This document shows positions 8,899 through 25,234 of a stretch of 44,605 nt of DNA, piece after piece. A model generated the notes under the pieces. That model was not told the origin of the DNA, ran no database searches, and saw only the letters and a list, made by a program, of their open reading frames with translations. The stretch's first letter is position 1. Every line of letters starts with the position of its first letter. Origin of the DNA: an uncultured Ectothiorhodospiraceae bacterium (GTDB taxonomy: Bacteria > Pseudomonadota > Gammaproteobacteria > XJ16 > Halofilaceae); the NCBI GenBank assembly GCA_913055615.1, contig CAJXKK010000022.1, positions 1 through 44,605 of the forward strand, read 5' to 3'. The translations under genes were made by a program, and so were the position numbers.

Positions 8899-9555
8899 TC
8901 AGCCGATGTAGCGGCGGTCGTCGAATTCCTTGACCCAGGCCGGGCGGTAGACGGCGAGGACGGAGACGATCATGCCGTTGATCACGCCTTCCGGGAGCGT
9001 GAGCAGGGCCATGATCACCCCGAGCTCGTCGCCGACCCGGCTCGCCTCCCAGGCGCCGCTGAGCAACAGCACCCCCGCATTCGCGCCGCGGCTGAAGAGG
9101 CCGGCGACGACCCCTCCGGCGAAGCCACAGCCGAGGAGATAGACGAACAGGTTGGGTGGCAACGTGCGCTCCAATCCGATCCGGATGCCATGGCTCACCG
9201 CGATCGGGAGCACACCGCCGGCGACGAACTCCAGCGGCACGAGCGGCCACGGCGTCAACTCCATCACTCCGACCGTTACGCTGGCGACGAGCGTGACCAC
9301 TACGGCCAGTGGCCAGCCGACCAGCAGCGTGAGCGCGGTCACACCCAGAAAGTGTGCGCTCAACCCCGGCGTGATGCCCGCGCGCACGAGCCAGAAGGCG
9401 ATCAGGACGAGCGTGGCGGCGCCGACCAGATGCTGCGCCGTCGGGCTCGTCACAAGGATGCGCCAGGGCAGGTGGCGCAGCGCCACCAGCAGGGCGATCA
9501 GCCCGACCACGGCGAGCGCGATGGACCACACGAGCGGGAATTCGGGCGCATTCAT
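8899..9555 (-). CDS. COG3235/CbiM-like integral membrane protein
   Basis: A 218-residue protein with six or so hydrophobic segments. The block VRAGITPGLSAHFLGVTALT, then LVGWPLAVVVTL and GFAGGVVAGLFSRGANAG, matches the CbiM-superfamily energy-coupling-factor permease relatives grouped as COG3235. CbiM itself is a Co2+ uptake component; its signature N-terminal metal-binding His is not present here, so metal specificity is uncertain. The start ATG at 9555 (MNAPEF) has GGAG 8 bases upstream. It diverges from the DUF2189 gene, and the intergenic region holds a perfect FNR/Anr box, so oxygen-responsive expression is plausible. No CbiN, CbiQ or CbiO gene is adjacent. Confidence 0.75.
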   Translation of the reverse strand: MNAPEFPLVWSIALAVVGLIALLVALRHLPWRILVTSPTAQHLVGAATLVLIAFWLVRAGITPGLSAHFLGVTALTLLVGWPLAVVVTLVASVTVGVMELTPWPLVPLEFVAGGVLPIAVSHGIRIGLERTLPPNLFVYLLGCGFAGGVVAGLFSRGANAGVLLLSGAWEASRVGDELGVIMALLTLPEGVINGMIVSVLAVYRPAWVKEFDDRRYIG

Positions 9556-9723
9556 GCGATCCACTCCGCGACGCGACGGTCTTCGGGGAGGCCGCCGTGC
9601 TGCTCTTGGTTCGGGCGTTGTTTCGCTCGCGTCATGACCCCGCTTCCGTTGATCCGGCGGCTATTGTAAGACGCCGGCGCAAGCCCGCGGCGTGAACCTC
9701 CAACGGCATCCCGGTGAGCGGCG

Positions 9724-14673: not shown

Positions 14674-15078
14674 TCACTGCACGAGGAGCAGATAGCGCGC
14701 GTAGCCCGTTTTCACCGGATGCGGCGCCATCCAGATGAGCCCGCGCTCGCGTAACACCGACAGTACACGGCCCAGGGCGTCCGGAGCGAGACCCGTGCAG
14801 CGGCGCAGATCGGCGTGCCCGATCCAGCCGGCCGCGCGTCGCCGGGCGCGCAATTTGTGTATGGCAAAGAGCACGCTGAATTCGGTCGTATCAAGATCTT
14901 CGCGCTGCAGCAGCCATTCCGTCACCGCGTCATTACCCCGCTCGGGGGCCTCGGACGGGGTCGGAGGGGCGGCGGCACCGGCGCGGGCCGACGCGGGCAT
15001 CCTGGATGCAGCGACGGTCCTCAGGGCGGTCTGGCCATCGCTTCCGGGTTGCGTGCGGGTGTGCGGATATTCGGGCAT
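14674..15078 (-). CDS. Small putative winged-helix protein behind a cobalamin riboswitch
   Basis: A 134-residue protein. The first 50 residues are disordered-looking (Pro/Ala/Thr/Arg). The remainder, TTEFSVLFAIHKLRARRRAA then HADLRRCTGLAPDALGRVLS and VLRERGLIWM, reads like a winged helix-turn-helix: helix, turn, recognition helix, then a basic wing. A role as a DNA-binding regulator is therefore inference from pattern. The ATG at 15078 has GGAGGAG directly upstream. It is the first coding region downstream of a promoter and complete cobalamin-riboswitch aptamer on the same strand, so adenosyl- or methylcobalamin should control it. I do not recognise the gene as part of B12 biosynthesis or cobalt transport. 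Confidence 0.65.
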   Translation of the reverse strand: MPEYPHTRTQPGSDGQTALRTVAASRMPASARAGAAAPPTPSEAPERGNDAVTEWLLQREDLDTTEFSVLFAIHKLRARRRAAGWIGHADLRRCTGLAPDALGRVLSVLRERGLIWMAPHPVKTGYARYLLLVQ

Positions 15079-15103
15079 GGCTCCTCCAGATCGAACCGGC
15101 TCA

Positions 15104-15293
15104 AGGAGGAACCAACGCGTTGCGAGGACGGGAGAACGGATTCGTGGTGCCCTGCGAGGGCGAATCCTGCGTGCATCTCGGCCTCGGACCTTTGACGCGA
15201 AGGTTCCGGGCGGCCCCGCCATCAGCGGGCCGATCCTGCGAGGTGTTCGGGCTCAACGGGCGTGCGTGCCCGTCATACCGTTGCGCGACAGCC
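15104..15293 (-). repeat. 190-bp repeat, copy 1 (riboswitch 3' half plus leader)
   Basis: This segment aligns without gaps to 25045-25234 in the same orientation; I count roughly 28 differences in 190 positions (about 85% identity). Flanking DNA does not match. It spans the 3' part of the cobalamin aptamer and about 130 bases of downstream leader. The conserved region therefore is not just the ligand-binding core but includes the expression platform. Confidence 0.85.
15138..15167 (-). terminator. Leader hairpin, candidate expression platform
   Basis: Read on the minus strand, GGATTCG and CGAATCC form a perfect 7-bp outer stem. An inner CCCT-CGC-AGGG hairpin lies between them. GTTCTCCC follows, only weakly U-rich. 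It sits between the cobalamin aptamer and the start codon. In copy 2 the outer stem keeps six of seven pairs. It could be the riboswitch-controlled terminator, but a strong U-tract is lacking. Confidence 0.4.
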
Positions 15294-15352
15294 CCGGATT
15301 CTCACCGGTGTTCCCCTCGTGCGCCCCATATCCTGGGTGCGCGATCAGGACG
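15232..15352 (-). promoter_or_regulatory. Cobalamin riboswitch (aptamer)
   Basis: On the minus strand the conserved core blocks of the cobalamin aptamer occur in order: GGGAACACCGGTGAGAATCC (15315-15296), CTGTCGCGCAACGGT (near 15291-15277) and GAGCCCGAACACCT (15254-15241). The 5' TCCTG at the start of the transcript can pair with CAGGA after the last block to close P1. These match the consensus GGGAA-GGTG-AATCC ... CTGTC-CGCAACGGT ... GAGCCCGAAGACCT. One position of the last block differs (C for G). The switch should turn expression down when cobalamin is bound; whether it acts on transcription or translation here is not clear. Confidence 0.85.
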
Positions 15353-15357
15353 TTACC

Positions 15358-15386
15358 AATATATAGCGCCCTCGGTCAGGCGTAAA
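15358..15386 (-). promoter_or_regulatory. Sigma70-type promoter for the riboswitch leader
   Basis: Minus strand: TTTACG (15386-15381), 17-bp spacer, TATATT (15363-15358). Transcription would begin around 15350, exactly where the P1 stem of the aptamer begins, which supports both calls. Confidence 0.6.
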
Positions 15387-16849: not shown

Positions 16850-17647
16850 ATGAACGAACCCGCACCACTGACGGTCGCCGCCTTCCAGTACACGGCCCGG
16901 GACGAGGATGCCGCCGCGCGGCTCAAGCGCCTGGACGGGGCGGCCCACGAGGCCGCGGAGCGCGGCGCGCGCCTGCTCGTCACGCCCGAGGTATTCGTGT
17001 CCGGGTACGGCGGGATGCCGGGTCGTATCCACGCGCGCGCCGAACCGGCCGACGGCCCCTCCGCCCAGCGCGCCGCGGCGATCGCCCGCGACCACGGCAT
17101 CGCGATCGTGCTCGGTTACCCCGAGGCCGCCGACGGCGTCGTCTACAACGCCGCGCTTTGCATCGCGCCGGACGGCACCCCGCTCGCCAACCACCGCAAG
17201 CTGGGTCTGTCGGGCACCGACGAGCAGAGCACCTACGCGCGCGGTGATGCCGTGACGCTGTTCGAGCTCGACGGCCACCGCATCGGCGTGCTGATCTGCT
17301 ACGACGTGGAGTTCCCCGAATTGGCCCGTATGGGCACACTCGCCGGCGCCACCACCTTTGCGGTCCCGACCGCACTGGTCTCCCGCTGGCCGGTGGTCGC
17401 CGAGAAGATGATCCCCACACGCGCGCTCGAGAACGGGGTCTGCGTCGCTTTCGCGAATTACACCGGCAGCGAGGATGGGCTCGAGTACCTCGGCTCGAGC
17501 CGTATCGTCGGACCGACCGGTGAGGACCGGATACGCGCGGAGCGGGGAGAAACGGTGATCGTCGCCGCCATTGAACCGTCAGCGGTGGCGACGGCACGCG
17601 CGCGCCTCCCCTATCTTGCGGATCGCCTCACGTTGCCGGATTCGTAA
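16850..17647 (+). CDS. Carbon-nitrogen hydrolase (nitrilase superfamily amidase)
   Basis: A 265-residue cytosolic amidase. The catalytic triad is complete: Glu in LLVTPEVFVSGY, Lys in ANHRKLGLSG and Cys in VLICYDVEFPE. Length and the presence of the second Glu region (EKMIPTRALENGV) fit branch members acting on small amides such as omega-amidase, N-carbamoyl compounds or aliphatic amides; the precise substrate is not visible. Start: I prefer the ATG at 16850 (MNEPAP) with GGAA 7 bases upstream; another ATG lies 15 bases earlier. It is 97 bases upstream of the iron ABC ATPase but the intervening DNA contains a Fur-like box, so it is probably transcribed separately. Confidence 0.9.
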   Translation: MNEPAPLTVAAFQYTARDEDAAARLKRLDGAAHEAAERGARLLVTPEVFVSGYGGMPGRIHARAEPADGPSAQRAAAIARDHGIAIVLGYPEAADGVVYNAALCIAPDGTPLANHRKLGLSGTDEQSTYARGDAVTLFELDGHRIGVLICYDVEFPELARMGTLAGATTFAVPTALVSRWPVVAEKMIPTRALENGVCVAFANYTGSEDGLEYLGSSRIVGPTGEDRIRAERGETVIVAAIEPSAVATARARLPYLADRLTLPDS

Positions 17648-17691
17648 AGACCCGCAGGCTCACTCGCTGATTGCGAACCGTTGCGGTCCGC

Positions 17692-17710
17692 ATTTCTGTT
17701 ATCGTTATCC
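17692..17710. promoter_or_regulatory. Candidate Fur box upstream of the iron ABC ATPase
   Basis: On the minus strand the 19 bases read GATAACGATAACAGAAATG. The first twelve match the Fur hexamer array GATAATGATAAT at ten positions; the third hexamer is poor. It lies 35 bases before the ATPase start codon, where repression of an iron transport gene would be expected. Confidence 0.45.
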
Positions 17711-17744
17711 CCCCTTCGAGACAACGGTAACGTGCCCGGCCATC

Positions 17745-18884
17745 ATGGCGACCCGACCCCTGCCACAGACTCCCGAATCGAGCACCGATCCCGGCGACGG
17801 CGCCGCCGAATCGACCGTGCTGGAGATGCGCGGGATCCGCCACCATTTCGGCGACCTGTGCGCCGTCGACGGCGTCGACCTGGACGTCAAGGCGCGGGAA
17901 GTCGTCTGCCTGCTGGGACCATCAGGCTGCGGCAAGACCACGCTGCTCCGCCTGGCGTCCGGGATCGAGCCCCTCCAGGAGGGCGCGATCCACATCGCGG
18001 GGCGCTCCATGAACCCGGGCGCCGCCGGCCGCGACATTCCGCCTGAGCGGCGCAACGTCGGCCTGATGTTCCAGGACTCGGCACTGTTCCCGCACCTCGA
18101 CGTCCTGGACAACGTGGTCTTCGGCCTCGATGGCCTCGGCGCGCGCGAACGCGGGCGCCGCGGTCACGCGCTGCTGCGCCAGCTCGGCATGGACGAGTAC
18201 GCGCACACCCATCCGCACATGCTGTCCGGGGGCCAACAGCAGCGCGTGGCCCTCGCCCGCGCGCTCGCACCCTCACCGCCGCTGATGCTGCTCGACGAGC
18301 CCTTCAGCGGGCTCGACGCGCGGCTGCGCGACCAGGTGCGCGACGACACGCTGCACACCCTCAAGGAGGTTGGCAAGGGCACGCTGCTGGTCACGCATGA
18401 CCCGGAAGAGGCCATGTTCATGGCCGACCGCATTGCCCTCATGCGCGACGGCCGGATCGTCCAGATGGGCCGGCCCATCGACCTCTACTGCCATCCCGTC
18501 GACCCCTTCGTCGCCACCTTCTTCGGCGACGTCAACCGCATCGACGGTGTCGTCGAGGGCGGTTCCGTGCAGACCATCGCGGGTAGCATCGAAACGCCCT
18601 ACATCGCGGATGGCACGGCGGTCGAGGTGCTGATCCGCCCCGAGGCCATCCACCTTGTCCCCATGGGCGCCCCCGACGAATCCGGTGGGCACGACACCAG
18701 CCACGTAATGGTCTCGCGCCTCCTCGGCCGCACCAGCCTGATCCACGTCTGCGCGCACGGCATGGACGGCGCAGAGGAGCACCTGCACTCGCGGATGCCC
18801 GGCGTCTTCCTGCCGCAAGAGAACCAGCCGGTCATGCTGCAGCTCGACCGCTCCCAGGTATTCGTGTTCCCGCGCAGCGCCTGA
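17745..18884 (+). CDS. fbpC: Fe3+ ABC transporter ATP-binding protein
   Basis: A 379-residue ABC ATPase of the FbpC/FutC iron type. It shows Walker A GPSGCGKTT, Q-loop region NVGLMFQDSALFPHL, signature LSGGQQQRVALARALA, Walker B LMLLDEPFSGLD and the H-loop VTHDPEEA. A C-terminal TOBE-like domain follows (DVNRIDGVVEGGS onward, with VEVLIRPEAIHL). It would power ferric ion import through the permease encoded convergently at 18921-20627. A short disordered N-terminus (about 30 residues) precedes the domain. The ATG at 17745 was chosen because the domain starts soon after; no strong ribosome binding site is visible. A Fur-like box sits just upstream. The gene is unusually separated in orientation from its permease and binding protein. 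Confidence 0.9.
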   Translation: MATRPLPQTPESSTDPGDGAAESTVLEMRGIRHHFGDLCAVDGVDLDVKAREVVCLLGPSGCGKTTLLRLASGIEPLQEGAIHIAGRSMNPGAAGRDIPPERRNVGLMFQDSALFPHLDVLDNVVFGLDGLGARERGRRGHALLRQLGMDEYAHTHPHMLSGGQQQRVALARALAPSPPLMLLDEPFSGLDARLRDQVRDDTLHTLKEVGKGTLLVTHDPEEAMFMADRIALMRDGRIVQMGRPIDLYCHPVDPFVATFFGDVNRIDGVVEGGSVQTIAGSIETPYIADGTAVEVLIRPEAIHLVPMGAPDESGGHDTSHVMVSRLLGRTSLIHVCAHGMDGAEEHLHSRMPGVFLPQENQPVMLQLDRSQVFVFPRSA

Positions 18885-18920
18885 AAGCCGCTACCGGAAA
18901 GCGCGTGCGCTCTGCGTCGC

Positions 18921-20627
18921 TCAATTCCTTGGCCGGGAGCCACCCGGCCGCGATCGGCCCATCGCCCGGCTGAGCAGGATCACGGGCACGATACCGACGG
19001 CGACGATCGCCAGCGACGCCGTCGAGGCCTCGGCCAGGCGCTCATCGGAGGCGAGTTCGTGGGCCCGGATGGCCAGGGTGTCGAAGTTGAAGGGCCGCAG
19101 GATCACGGTCGCCGGCAGCTCCTTCATGACATCGACAAAGACGAGAATACCCGCGGCGAGCAGGCTGCTGCGCATGATGGGTGCGTGGACCAGCCGCAGG
19201 GTCCGGCCCGCCGTCTTGCCGAGCGTGCGCGACGCGGCATCCATGCTGGGCGTGACCTTCTCCAGGCTCGCCTCGATGGCGTTGTAGGCCACGGCGAGGA
19301 AACGCACCACATAGGCGTAGACCAGCGCGACCATCGTTCCGGTCAGGATCAGTCCGGTGCTGATGCCGAAGTGGTCACGGAAGAAAGCGTGGATCGCCTG
19401 GTCCACCGCCCCCAGCGGGATCAGTATGCCGACCGCGATCACGGAGCCGGGAACGGCGTACCCCATCGCCGCGATCCGCGCGGCGAACCGCGTCCCCCCG
19501 CTTTGCTGCAAGCGCACCCCGTAACTCAACAGAAGCGCCAGCGTCACGGCGAGCGTGGCCGAGACGACGGCCAGGATCAGGCTGTTGCCTGCCATGTCGA
19601 TAAAGCGCCCACCGAGCAGGTCATCGCCGTCGTGCAGCGTCATCCACAGAAGGAGCGCCCCCGGGAGGAGGAAACCAACGGCGATCGGTGTCGCGCAGGC
19701 GAACCAGGCGAGTGCCGCCCGCGCACCGCAGAGCGGGAAGCGCGGCAATTCCCGATAGCGCGACGAGGTGTGGAAGTAGCGCGCCCGGCCCCGCGACCAG
19801 CGCTCGGCCAGTACGAGCAGGATCACGAACGTCAGCAGGCTCGCCGCCAGCTGGGCCGCCGCGACGGGCTCGCCCAGGCCGAACCACGTTCGGTAGATCC
19901 CGGTGGTGAAGGTATCCACACCGAAGAAGTGGACCGCGCCGAACTCGTTCAGCGTCTCCATCAGCACGAGCGCCGTTCCGCCGGCGATCGCGGGGCGCGC
20001 CAGCGGGATCGCCACGCCGAAAAGCAGACGCGTGGGCGTGCGCCCCAGGGTCCGGCCGACCTCGAGCACGCAGGCCGACTGCTCCAGGAATGCGGCGCGC
20101 GTGAGCAGATACACGTAGGGATAGAGCACGAGCGCCAGCAGGACGATGGCGCCGCCGAGCGAGCGGATATCGGGGAACCAGTAATCGTGCCGCGTCCAGT
20201 CGAACAACTCGCGCAGGCCCGTCTGCACGGGACCGGTGAACTGCAGGAAGTCGGTGTAGGCGTAGGCGATGACGTAGGTCGGCACGGCCAGCGGCAGCAG
20301 CAGCGCCCACTCGAAGATCCGCCGCCCGGGGAACCGGCACATGACCACGAGCCAGGCGCTACCCACGCCGACAATGAATACCAGTACGCCCACGCCCGTG
20401 GCGAGGATCGCGGTATTGATCAGGTAGCGCGGCAGGACCGTAGCGGCCAGGTGGTTCCAGACCTCGGGCGCCGGCACGAAGACATGGGCCAGAACAGCCA
20501 GGATCGGCAGGGCCACCAGGCCCGCGATCAGCCAGGTGAAGCCGGTCCACGCGCCGAGTTCCGCGAGTGCGCGCCGCCAAAAGGCGCTGAAACGGTACAG
20601 ACTGGCGCTGCTCACGGCCGGTCGCAT
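18921..20627 (-). CDS. fbpB: Fe3+ ABC transporter permease, fused two-domain
   Basis: A 568-residue inner-membrane permease with two internal repeats of the binding-protein-dependent permease domain, about twelve membrane helices in all. The EAA-loop equivalents are EVGRTLGRTPTRLLFGVAIP in the first half and DAASRTLGKTAGRTLRLVHA in the second, which dock to the ATPase. This single-chain duplicated layout is typical of FbpB/FutB ferric permeases. I chose the ATG at 20627 (MRPAVSSASL); a further ATG lies 78 bases upstream but adds an unlikely Cys- and Arg-rich leader. It follows the binding-protein gene on the same strand after a 355-base gap containing a strong hairpin. Confidence 0.9.
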   Translation of the reverse strand: MRPAVSSASLYRFSAFWRRALAELGAWTGFTWLIAGLVALPILAVLAHVFVPAPEVWNHLAATVLPRYLINTAILATGVGVLVFIVGVGSAWLVVMCRFPGRRIFEWALLLPLAVPTYVIAYAYTDFLQFTGPVQTGLRELFDWTRHDYWFPDIRSLGGAIVLLALVLYPYVYLLTRAAFLEQSACVLEVGRTLGRTPTRLLFGVAIPLARPAIAGGTALVLMETLNEFGAVHFFGVDTFTTGIYRTWFGLGEPVAAAQLAASLLTFVILLVLAERWSRGRARYFHTSSRYRELPRFPLCGARAALAWFACATPIAVGFLLPGALLLWMTLHDGDDLLGGRFIDMAGNSLILAVVSATLAVTLALLLSYGVRLQQSGGTRFAARIAAMGYAVPGSVIAVGILIPLGAVDQAIHAFFRDHFGISTGLILTGTMVALVYAYVVRFLAVAYNAIEASLEKVTPSMDAASRTLGKTAGRTLRLVHAPIMRSSLLAAGILVFVDVMKELPATVILRPFNFDTLAIRAHELASDERLAEASTASLAIVAVGIVPVILLSRAMGRSRPGGSRPRN

Positions 20628-20982
20628 CGAAACGGGGTTACACCGGAGGGGGCGGCCGGGTGGGCGCCCGTACGCGTGCATACAACACGCGCCGCCGTGG
20701 TCCATTGCCTACCCGTGGCCCCGGTCATGAACAGGAATCCAGTCATTCGTCGATGAAACGTGGGCGCGTGGACCGACGCGGAACGAATGCTCGCGCATAT
20801 CGGCGGCAGTGGACACGCGCGTGGTCGGTGCTTCGCTATGCGGCGTGGACGCGGTTATCCGGCCAGTGTCGCCGAGCCCCGCGAACGGTGCAAGACACGG
20901 CCCGCCAGCGAGGGTGACAGAGACGGGCGGGGCCGGTCGATCGACCGGCCCCGCCGCCCTCATTGCCGTCTGGAAGCCGGAC
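20628..20982. other. Spacer between iron binding-protein and permease genes
   Basis: About 355 bases without a supportable gene. The only clear structure is the 30-base perfect palindrome at 20926-20955 near the end of the binding-protein gene. The rest shows no domain-bearing reading frame or obvious promoter. Confidence 0.4.
20926..20955 (-). terminator. Perfect 30-base palindrome downstream of the iron-binding protein gene
   Basis: GGCGGGGCCGGTCGA (20926-20940) is followed with no spacer by its exact reverse complement (20941-20955), giving a 13-bp GC stem with a GATC loop. It lies 27 bases past the binding-protein stop codon. The downstream bases (minus strand) are CGTCTCTGTC, not a clean U-tract. 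Such hairpins often cap and stabilise binding-protein mRNA and reduce read-through into the permease. Confidence 0.65.
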
Positions 20983-21996
20983 TCAGCGCCAGCCGACCCG
21001 GTCCATGATCCGGACCGCCGTCGGGTTGTTGCCGCCCAGTTCGCTGACGTTCACATCGTCGATGACGATATCCCGCCCCCAGTCCTGCAGGACCTCGGGC
21101 CGTGGCGCGCCCGGGACCACCGGGTACTCGTTGTTGCCTTTGGCGAACAGGGCCTGAGCCTCGTCGCTGACCATGAACTCGAGCAGCTCCACCGCCGCTT
21201 CCCGGTTGGGTGCGCCGTCGACGATACCTGCGCCGCCGATGTTGGCGTGCGCGCCCCGGCCATCCTGGTTGGGGAAGATCACGCCAACCTGCTCGGCGAC
21301 CTCTCGGTCGTCCGCGTCATCGGAGTGCAGCAGGCGCAGGTAGTAGTAATGGTTCGCCACCGCGAGTTCGCACTCGCCGGCCGCGGCACCGCGGATCTGG
21401 TCGGTATCGCCACCCTGTGGCGAGCGCGCCAGGTTGTCCACGAGGCCCTGTGCCCACTCCGTCGCCTTGTCCTGGCCGTGTTCGGCGATGATCGAGGCCA
21501 TCAGCGACTGGTTGTAGATATTCGACGACGAGCGGATGCAGACCTGGCCCTCGAAGCGGTCGTCGGCCAGATCCTCGTAGCGCTCCAGCTCGGCCGGGTC
21601 GAAATTCTCCTTGTTATAGAACACCAGACGCAGGCGCTGGCTAAGGCCAAACCAGAGCCCTTGCGGATGGCGCAGCCGGGACGGAATGCGCTCGCTCAGG
21701 ACGTCGGATTCCGTCGACTGGAAGATGCCATCTTCCTCGGCGCGCCAGAGCCGTCCGGCGTCGACCGTGATCATGATGTCGGCGGGACTGGCATCGCCTT
21801 CGCGCTTGATGCGCTGGATCAACTCGTCGGAATCGCCCTCCAGGACGTTGACCTCGATGCCGGTCTTCTCGGTGAACAGATCGTAGAGCTGATCGTCCGT
21901 ATCGTAATGCCGCGCCGAGTAGACGTTCACGCTCTCGGCCGCGACTGGCGCGGCCAGCGCGGTCATGGCCAATCCTATAAGCCAGCGGTTCATCAT
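20983..21996 (-). CDS. fbpA: Fe3+ ABC transporter periplasmic binding protein
   Basis: A 337-residue exported protein. The signal peptide is MMNRWLIGLAMTALAAPVAA, cut before ESVNVYSARHY. The mature protein is a type II periplasmic binding fold with iron-ligand candidates: the VYSARHYDTD N-terminal loop and the tyrosine cluster NHYYYLRLL at about 217-225, the position of the paired Tyr ligands in FbpA/FutA. GIVDGAPNREAAVELLEFMV and the C-terminal NNEYPVVPGA segment are also family hallmarks. The ATG at 21996 has GGAGGT 6 bases upstream. A Fur-like half-site lies about 40 bases upstream. It delivers ferric iron to the permease encoded downstream. Confidence 0.93.
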   Translation of the reverse strand: MMNRWLIGLAMTALAAPVAAESVNVYSARHYDTDDQLYDLFTEKTGIEVNVLEGDSDELIQRIKREGDASPADIMITVDAGRLWRAEEDGIFQSTESDVLSERIPSRLRHPQGLWFGLSQRLRLVFYNKENFDPAELERYEDLADDRFEGQVCIRSSSNIYNQSLMASIIAEHGQDKATEWAQGLVDNLARSPQGGDTDQIRGAAAGECELAVANHYYYLRLLHSDDADDREVAEQVGVIFPNQDGRGAHANIGGAGIVDGAPNREAAVELLEFMVSDEAQALFAKGNNEYPVVPGAPRPEVLQDWGRDIVIDDVNVSELGGNNPTAVRIMDRVGWR

Positions 21997-22325
21997 CAGG
22001 GTACCTCCACCATTACCGATAAGGAGCGCTCGACAATAAATGAGAATAACTCCGATTTGCAATCACAAAACGATGACATCTCACGCCGTGGTGATGACGC
22101 TTCACCAATCTGTCGGATCACGCGGGGCTGTACACCCTCTGCGCACGACAGAGCACAACTCGATTGCGAGGTGTGCCGCACGACCGGAACGTGATTGTCC
22201 GCGCAGCTCGCTTTCCGGCTCACGTGGTCATGCATTTTGCGCACCCATCAGTCGCACTTGCCTCGTCAGGTAAAATGCGACGAGGCGGTTGTCCGGGCCT
22301 CTTACGCACGGGATCGGGAGTCGAC
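21997..22325. other. Divergent intergenic region, iron binding protein / BCCT
   Basis: About 329 bases between divergent start codons, noticeably AT-richer near the iron gene. It carries a Fur-like motif at 22036-22054. Close to the BCCT gene, GGTAAAATGCG (near 22266) could contain a -10 hexamer (TAAAAT), without a convincing -35. Confidence 0.4.
22036..22054. promoter_or_regulatory. Candidate Fur box upstream of the iron binding protein
   Basis: ATAAATGAGAATAACTCCG contains TGAGAAT, a strong match to the left half of the Fur 7-1-7 consensus (TGATAAT-N-ATTATCA); the right half is weak. It is 40 bases from the binding-protein start codon. Together with the box near 17700 it suggests Fur control of the whole iron uptake set. 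Confidence 0.4.
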
Positions 22326-24978: not shown

Positions 24979-25044
24979 GGGAGTCCTTCACGGTCGCTGA
25001 AAAACGCCCCCAGTATAGGGGACAGCAAGGCCACGATCATGCAA

Positions 25045-25234
25045 AGCAGGAACCAACGCGCTGCGAGGACGGGAGAAAGGATCCGTGGTGCCCGGTGAAG
25101 GCGAATCCGGCGTGCATCTCGGCCTCGGACCCTGGAGGCGAAGGTTCCGGGGCAGCTCCGCCAGCGGCGGGCCGATCCTGCGAGGTCTTCGGGCTCGACG
25201 GCCACGATTGCCCGTCACACCGTTGCGCGTCAGG
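25045..25234 (-). repeat. 190-bp repeat, copy 2 (truncated cobalamin riboswitch leader)
   Basis: This segment aligns gaplessly to 15104-15293. On the minus strand it keeps GCGCAACGGTGTGACGGGC and the block GAGCCCGAAGACCT, which is closer to the B12 consensus than copy 1, plus the downstream leader. The 5' half of the aptamer (GGGAA-GGTG-AATCC) is absent; in its place is the 3' end of the NnrU gene, whose stop codon overlaps the repeat edge. It therefore should not bind cobalamin normally. It runs toward, and ends 66 bases before, the mbfA start codon. A relic of a duplication is the simplest reading. Confidence 0.8.

What the first reader, a model, noticed from the sequence alone, without database searches (positions are those of the whole stretch)
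15104..15386. Cobalamin riboswitch controls an orphan winged-helix-like gene
Promoter (TTTACG-17-TATATT), complete aptamer blocks and a leader hairpin stand in front of a 134-residue protein with an HTH-like core. Cobalamin riboswitches usually precede B12 biosynthesis, cobalt transport, btuB-type receptors or B12-independent isozymes; none of those is visible within 10 kb except a distant CbiM-like protein. If real, a small regulator under B12 control would be a new kind of output, spreading the B12 signal in trans.
Basis: partly seen in the sequence, partly recalled or inferred. Interest (0 to 1): 0.75.

Follow-up and report, generated by a model that had tools for sequence, protein, structure and literature searches.

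The report
B12 riboswitch before a regulator gene
A compact vitamin-B12-sensing RNA switch sits directly in front of a small DNA-binding-type protein gene, and the two are conserved together in three related bacterial species at three different places in the genome, which suggests that the vitamin signal is passed on through a regulator protein rather than straight to B12 genes.

Summary
Rfam Cobalamin (RF00174) matches window 15364-15221 (-) at 33.6 bits (cut-off 31.5), behind a promoter with the stated spacing. The element is compact: it lacks the large P6 accessory region and also scores 31.5 bits against AdoCbl-II (RF01689; cut-off 36.5, not reached). Promoter, aptamer core, switching helices, ribosome-binding site and winged-helix gene are conserved together in all three held genomes of the genus, although the gene neighbourhood differs in each. 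The protein is under purifying selection (dN/dS 0.11 over the winged-helix part) and is predicted to fold as a winged helix. The leader holds mutually exclusive helices, predicted to be nearly equal in energy in two species: one frees the ribosome-binding site, the other hides it. Most likely mechanism: translational repression of the regulator when B12 is plentiful. Ligand binding, direction of control and the regulator's targets are inferred. B12 riboswitches with outputs acting in trans are already known (AspocR and Rli55 in Listeria), so this is a new variant of a known kind. A 5'-truncated second copy of the leader lies at 25233-25044 (-), before mbfA.

The parts
15358..15386 (-). Promoter TTTACG-17-TATATT
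   Evidence: Single match in the window, none in 100 shuffles; hexamers and 17-base spacing kept in G001 and G002 while the spacer differs
15221..15364 (-). Compact cobalamin riboswitch aptamer
   Evidence: RF00174 33.6 bits, E 5.8e-5; RF01689 31.5 bits, under its cut-off; outer stem 15351-15346 / 15238-15233 stays paired in G002 with a two-sided change
15284..15287 (-). CGCG in aptamer loop L5, proposed partner of L13 (inferred kissing loop)
   Evidence: Complementary to CGCG at 15199-15196; both invariant in three species
15186..15207 (-). P13 hairpin GGAACCUU-CGCGUCA-AAGGUCC
   Evidence: 7 pairs with one bulge in all three species
15195..15207 (-). 5' strand of the anti-sequestor (GGAACCUUCGCGU)
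   Evidence: 11 of 13 positions paired with 15120-15108 in all three species
15108..15120 (-). 3' strand of the anti-sequestor (ACGCGUUGGUUCC)
   Evidence: combined double complementarity reached by 61 of 20000 shuffled linkers
15105..15113 (-). Anti-ribosome-binding-site strand GGUUCCUCC (sequestor), overlaps the anti-sequestor
   Evidence: 9/9 pairs with 15087-15079; 9/9 also in G002 where the partner is GGAGGAAUC
15079..15087 (-). Ribosome-binding site GGAGGAGCC, directly before the start codon at 15078
   Evidence: sequence; conserved position in G001 and G002
14674..15078 (-). Gene for a 134-residue winged-helix protein, 50 disordered N-terminal residues
   Evidence: Model pLDDT about 80-94 from residue 51; MarR chains head the Foldseek list; dN/dS 0.24 overall, 0.11 over the domain against G001
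25044..25233 (-). 5'-truncated second copy of the leader, probably a relic
   Evidence: 87% identical; no promoter and no 5' half of the aptamer; L13 CGCG is CGCC

Best explanation
A compact cobalamin riboswitch controls, at the level of translation, a transcript for a small winged-helix DNA-binding protein. Without ligand, GGAACCUUCGCGU pairs with ACGCGUUGGUUCC (anti-sequestor), which leaves the ribosome-binding site free and the protein is made. With ligand, the aptamer loop L5 (CGCG) kisses L13 (CGCG), P13 forms and takes away the 5' strand of the anti-sequestor; GGUUCCUCC is then free to pair with GGAGGAGCC and translation stops. The regulator is therefore made when B12 is scarce and would carry that signal in trans to genes elsewhere. 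Shown: aptamer match, conservation, complementarities, near-equal predicted energies in two species, selection on the protein, predicted fold. Inferred: ligand, kissing loop, OFF direction, DNA binding, targets.
For: RF00174 match; promoter, aptamer core, switch helices and gene kept in three species in three neighbourhoods; P13, anti-sequestor and sequestor all stay paired in three species, with pair-keeping changes; ON and OFF platform energies -49.8/-50.3 here and -46.3/-46.5 in G001; the full-leader minimum is the OFF fold here and the ON fold in G001 and G002; double complementarity rare in shuffles; no T-run terminator in the leader after the promoter; winged helix; dN/dS 0.11; L5-L13 coupling is established for the family (PMC9600662).
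Against: Marginal family score, and G002 is under the cut-off. Only three sequences, so covariation is thin. Whole-leader stability is not unusual. In G002 the ON form is favoured by 6.5 kcal/mol without ligand. No target, operator or regulon found. No ligand data.
Confidence: 0.62

Rival explanations
1. The riboswitch is real and controls the gene, but the winged-helix protein is not a transcription regulator acting in trans; it is an auxiliary factor, for example in replication or as a protein partner.
For: No Pfam or NCBIfam model reaches its cut-off; PHROGs gives weak hits to replication initiators; winged helices of TFIIE and RPC62 score as well as MarR.
Against: MarR-family chains head the Foldseek list and MarR_2 is the best Pfam family of two of the three proteins.
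Confidence: 0.2
2. The aptamer acts mainly on transcript level or as a trans-acting RNA, and the downstream ORF is secondary.
For: B12 riboswitches with RNA outputs exist in Listeria (PMC8079631).
Against: The switch helices end exactly on the ribosome-binding site in all three species; no terminator-like site after the promoter on this strand; the ORF is under purifying selection.
Confidence: 0.08
3. The element is a decayed cobalamin riboswitch that no longer binds ligand, kept only as a leader.
For: Low family score beside 114-117 bits for the other two strong matches of the genome; a decayed copy does exist nearby.
Against: The ligand-binding core is identical in three species whose proteins have fallen to 37% identity, and the outer stem keeps pairing through changes.
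Confidence: 0.1

Closest known systems
Cobalamin riboswitch, Rfam RF00174
   Same: Matches the whole model over its cut-off here; conserved core; P13 with a loop complementary to L5; translational switch architecture.
   Different: Lacks the large P6 accessory region; about 80 bits weaker than the other two of this genome; the target is a winged-helix gene rather than B12 synthesis, transport, cobalt transport or isozymes (catalogue in PMC3766115).
AdoCbl-II riboswitch, Rfam RF01689
   Same: Compact size; 31.5 and 30.9 bits over the full model in two species; in this genome nothing else matches it at E up to 1.
   Different: Under the family cut-off of 36.5; RF00174 was the match kept when the families of the clan competed.
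AspocR and Rli55 of Listeria (B12 riboswitches with trans output)
   Same: The B12 signal is relayed to other genes by way of a regulator (PMC8079631).
   Different: There the riboswitch ends transcription of an antisense or sequestering RNA; here it appears to control translation of the regulator itself.
MarR-family transcription regulators
   Same: Winged-helix core by predicted fold; BpsR, RovA and MarR among the top Foldseek matches.
   Different: Under Pfam cut-offs; only the winged-helix part is confidently modelled, so the MarR dimer interface is not seen.

Membership tests
Cobalamin riboswitch RF00174 | Covariance-model match at or above the curated cut-off | tested here: met
   33.6 bits, cut-off 31.5; G001 35.8; G002 29.3, just under
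Cobalamin riboswitch RF00174 | L5-L13 kissing-loop complementarity | tested here: met
   CGCG in L5 and CGCG in L13, invariant in three species; formation of the contact was not tested
Cobalamin riboswitch RF00174 | Binds a cobalamin | not testable with these tools
   needs in-line probing or calorimetry
Cobalamin riboswitch RF00174 | Controls the gene downstream in a ligand-dependent way | not testable with these tools
   helices over the ribosome-binding site support it; needs a reporter
AdoCbl-II riboswitch RF01689 | Covariance-model match at or above the curated cut-off | tested here: not met
   31.5 bits, cut-off 36.5
MarR family regulator | Winged-helix DNA-binding fold | tested here: met
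   AlphaFold2 model; Foldseek and VIA-align matches; no Foldseek match under E 0.001
MarR family regulator | Pfam MarR or MarR_2 match at the curated cut-off | tested here: not met
   MarR_2 16 bits here and 23.4 in G002, cut-off 27; MarR 21.2 in G002, cut-off 24.6
MarR family regulator | Dimer that binds a palindromic operator | not tested
   no complex predicted; a scan with the conserved promoter motif gave only weak matches

The most novel reading that the evidence does not exclude
A B12 riboswitch whose only direct target is a free-standing transcription regulator, made when B12 is scarce, that relays the vitamin signal in trans to a set of genes without riboswitches of their own.
Probability: 0.5. 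Interest if true: 0.65.

Novelty: new variant of a known kind. Interest (0 to 1): 0.52.

Why it matters
Cobalamin riboswitches have been catalogued as controllers of B12 synthesis, B12 and cobalt transport and B12-independent isozymes (PMC3766115). A switch that controls a regulator instead would mean that B12 regulons read from riboswitch positions alone are incomplete. It is directly testable: one reporter and one deletion strain would show whether a set of genes follows B12 through this protein.

Tried and rejected
Relatives of the protein outside the genus: none in 366 other genomes, none confirmed in viral contigs. CbiM-like gene as conserved target: not found in the sister genomes. MetE as target: no MetE N-terminal domain in the three genomes. 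Operator search with the conserved promoter motif in held loci: only two-mismatch matches besides the riboswitch promoters. mbfA as a second riboswitch target: rejected, since the copy before it lacks promoter and 5' half of the aptamer. Survey of outputs: of 80 strong RF00174 matches in the class whose downstream DNA was fetched, 28 first genes were flagged TonB-receptor-like by a motif; of 36 others most were recognised by eye as TonB receptors, CobO, CbiM, CbtA, BluB, MetE, ribonucleotide-reductase or chelatase-like, and several are wrong-frame reads; 16 had no callable gene. I saw no DNA-binding regulator, but these proteins were not scanned with profiles. A covariance model of the leader was prepared (alignment A4) but not built. 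A pair count failed for a wrong string length; pairs were counted by script.

Full report
The observation. On the minus strand a promoter TTTACG-17-TATATT (15386-15358) is followed by a cobalamin aptamer and, about 140 bases after the aptamer match ends, by the start codon of a 134-residue ORF (15078-14674). Rfam RF00174 matches 15364-15221 at 33.6 bits, E 5.8e-5, cut-off 31.5. The promoter pattern occurs once in the window and in no shuffle.

Is it more than chance? The score alone is marginal, and the full leader folds no better than shuffled sequence (z 0.26). Conservation decides. Three genomes of the genus are held, and the family and order searches returned only these three. All three carry the element, at 33.6, 35.8 and 29.3 bits. 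The promoter hexamers (last base of the -35 excepted) and the 17-base spacing are kept while the spacer changes. A core of about 40 bases around GGGGAACACCGGUGAGAAUCCGGGGCUGUCGCGCAACGGU is identical in all three, although the proteins are 75% and 37% identical to this one.

It is a unit. The neighbourhood differs in each species: YceH-SnoaL-[riboswitch-gene] here, NnrU-[riboswitch-gene]-YceH-SnoaL in G001, carbonic anhydrase-[riboswitch-gene]-TRAP transporter in G002 (DUF480/YceH, SnoaL and NnrU of the window by Pfam; the other names by eye). Riboswitch and gene have stayed together while their neighbours changed.

A relic marks one move. A second, 5'-truncated copy of the leader (25233-25044, 87% identical) lies directly after the NnrU stop codon, the place where G001 has its intact copy. 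It lacks the promoter and the 5' half of the aptamer, and its L13 loop is changed from CGCG to CGCC. It is followed by mbfA (rubrerythrin plus VIT1 domains), whose listed relatives in the species genome collection are mostly Rhodobacteraceae proteins, at up to 82% identity. The simplest reading is duplication or relocation of the unit and decay of the old copy; this is inference.

What kind of aptamer. The large P6 accessory region is missing: the RF00174 alignment shows 5 bases where the model has a 55-position stretch. The compact AdoCbl-II model, RF01689, matches at 31.5 bits here and 30.9 in G001, under its cut-off of 36.5, and matches nothing else in this genome at E up to 1. The two other strong RF00174 matches of this genome score 116.5 and 114. 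I call it a compact cobalamin riboswitch. Which cobalamin it prefers cannot be told from sequence here.

How it most likely works. Three helices compete. P13 is GGAACCUU-loop-AAGGUCC with CGCG in its loop, complementary to CGCG in L5. The anti-sequestor pairs GGAACCUUCGCGU with ACGCGUUGGUUCC, 11 of 13 positions in each species. The sequestor pairs GGUUCCUCC with the ribosome-binding site GGAGGAGCC, 9/9; in G002 the partner is GGAGGAAUC, still 9/9. The outer aptamer stem GUCCUG/CAGGAU is GUCCUU/AAGGAC in G002, with a change on both sides of one pair. Constrained folding of the platform gives ON -49.8 and OFF -50.3 kcal/mol here, -46.3 and -46.5 in G001, but -63.2 and -56.7 in G002, where ON is favoured. 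The unconstrained full-leader minimum is OFF-like here and ON-like in G001 and G002. The double complementarity is reached by 61 and 84 of 20000 shuffled linkers. No terminator-like site follows the promoter on this strand. This is the pattern of a translational OFF switch: ligand, kissing loop, P13, release of the anti-ribosome-binding-site strand, start site hidden. Coupling through an L5-L13 kissing loop is established for cobalamin riboswitches (PMC9600662); that it operates here is inference.

The protein. AlphaFold2 on three sequences gives a winged helix with good confidence from residue 51 and a low-confidence N-terminus. Foldseek's list is led by MarR-family regulators, though no match is under E 0.001. 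VIA-align gives Z 8-10 to many winged-helix chains, MarR-type, TFIIE and RPC62 among them. Pfam MarR_2 reaches 16 bits here and 23.4 in G002 against a cut-off of 27, so I do not file the protein as a MarR member. dN/dS against G001 is 0.24 overall and 0.11 over the domain: it is a translated, selected protein. No relative was found in 366 other genomes.

B12 context. Of the two other strong RF00174 matches, one precedes a btuB-like receptor with cobO and bluB further downstream and the other a GcvT/DMSP-demethylase-like gene. No MetE N-terminal domain is found in the three genomes, while two of them have a 1240-codon open frame with a B12-binding domain, consistent with reliance on MetH. A regulator made when B12 is scarce would fit such a cell, but its targets are unknown.

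Novelty. The catalogue of cobalamin riboswitch outputs names B12 synthesis, B12 transport, cobalt transport and isozymes (PMC3766115). In a rough survey of 80 strong matches in the class I saw no regulator gene, by eye and motif only. Trans-acting B12 outputs are known in Listeria (PMC8079631). I rate this a new variant of a known kind: the sensor is known, the direct output appears unusual.

Noticed in passing
window 25044-25233 (-): A 5'-truncated, 87% identical second copy of the riboswitch leader between an NnrU gene and mbfA (rubrerythrin plus VIT1), a gene whose listed relatives are mostly Rhodobacteraceae proteins (up to 82% identity).
   Followed up: partly
L015:6037-7779 (G000 contig C3): A strong cobalamin riboswitch (116.5 bits) stands before a 439-residue GcvT-fold protein whose best NCBIfam model is DMSP demethylase (266.9 bits, cut-off 410); the same pair is in G001 (L103). 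It may be a folate-dependent, B12-independent demethylase under B12 control.
   Followed up: partly
window 8899-9564 (-): A CbiM-like membrane protein (Pfam 35.9 bits) found only in this one of the three genomes of the genus.
   Followed up: partly
G000:C8:43691-43804 (-), L004: A weak RF00174 match (16.5 bits, E 0.072) over model positions 48-166, under the cut-off; possibly chance.
   Followed up: no
window 17571-22062: An ABC uptake system with the ATPase on the + strand and the permease and substrate-binding protein on the - strand; it resembles ferric-iron importers by eye only.
   Followed up: no
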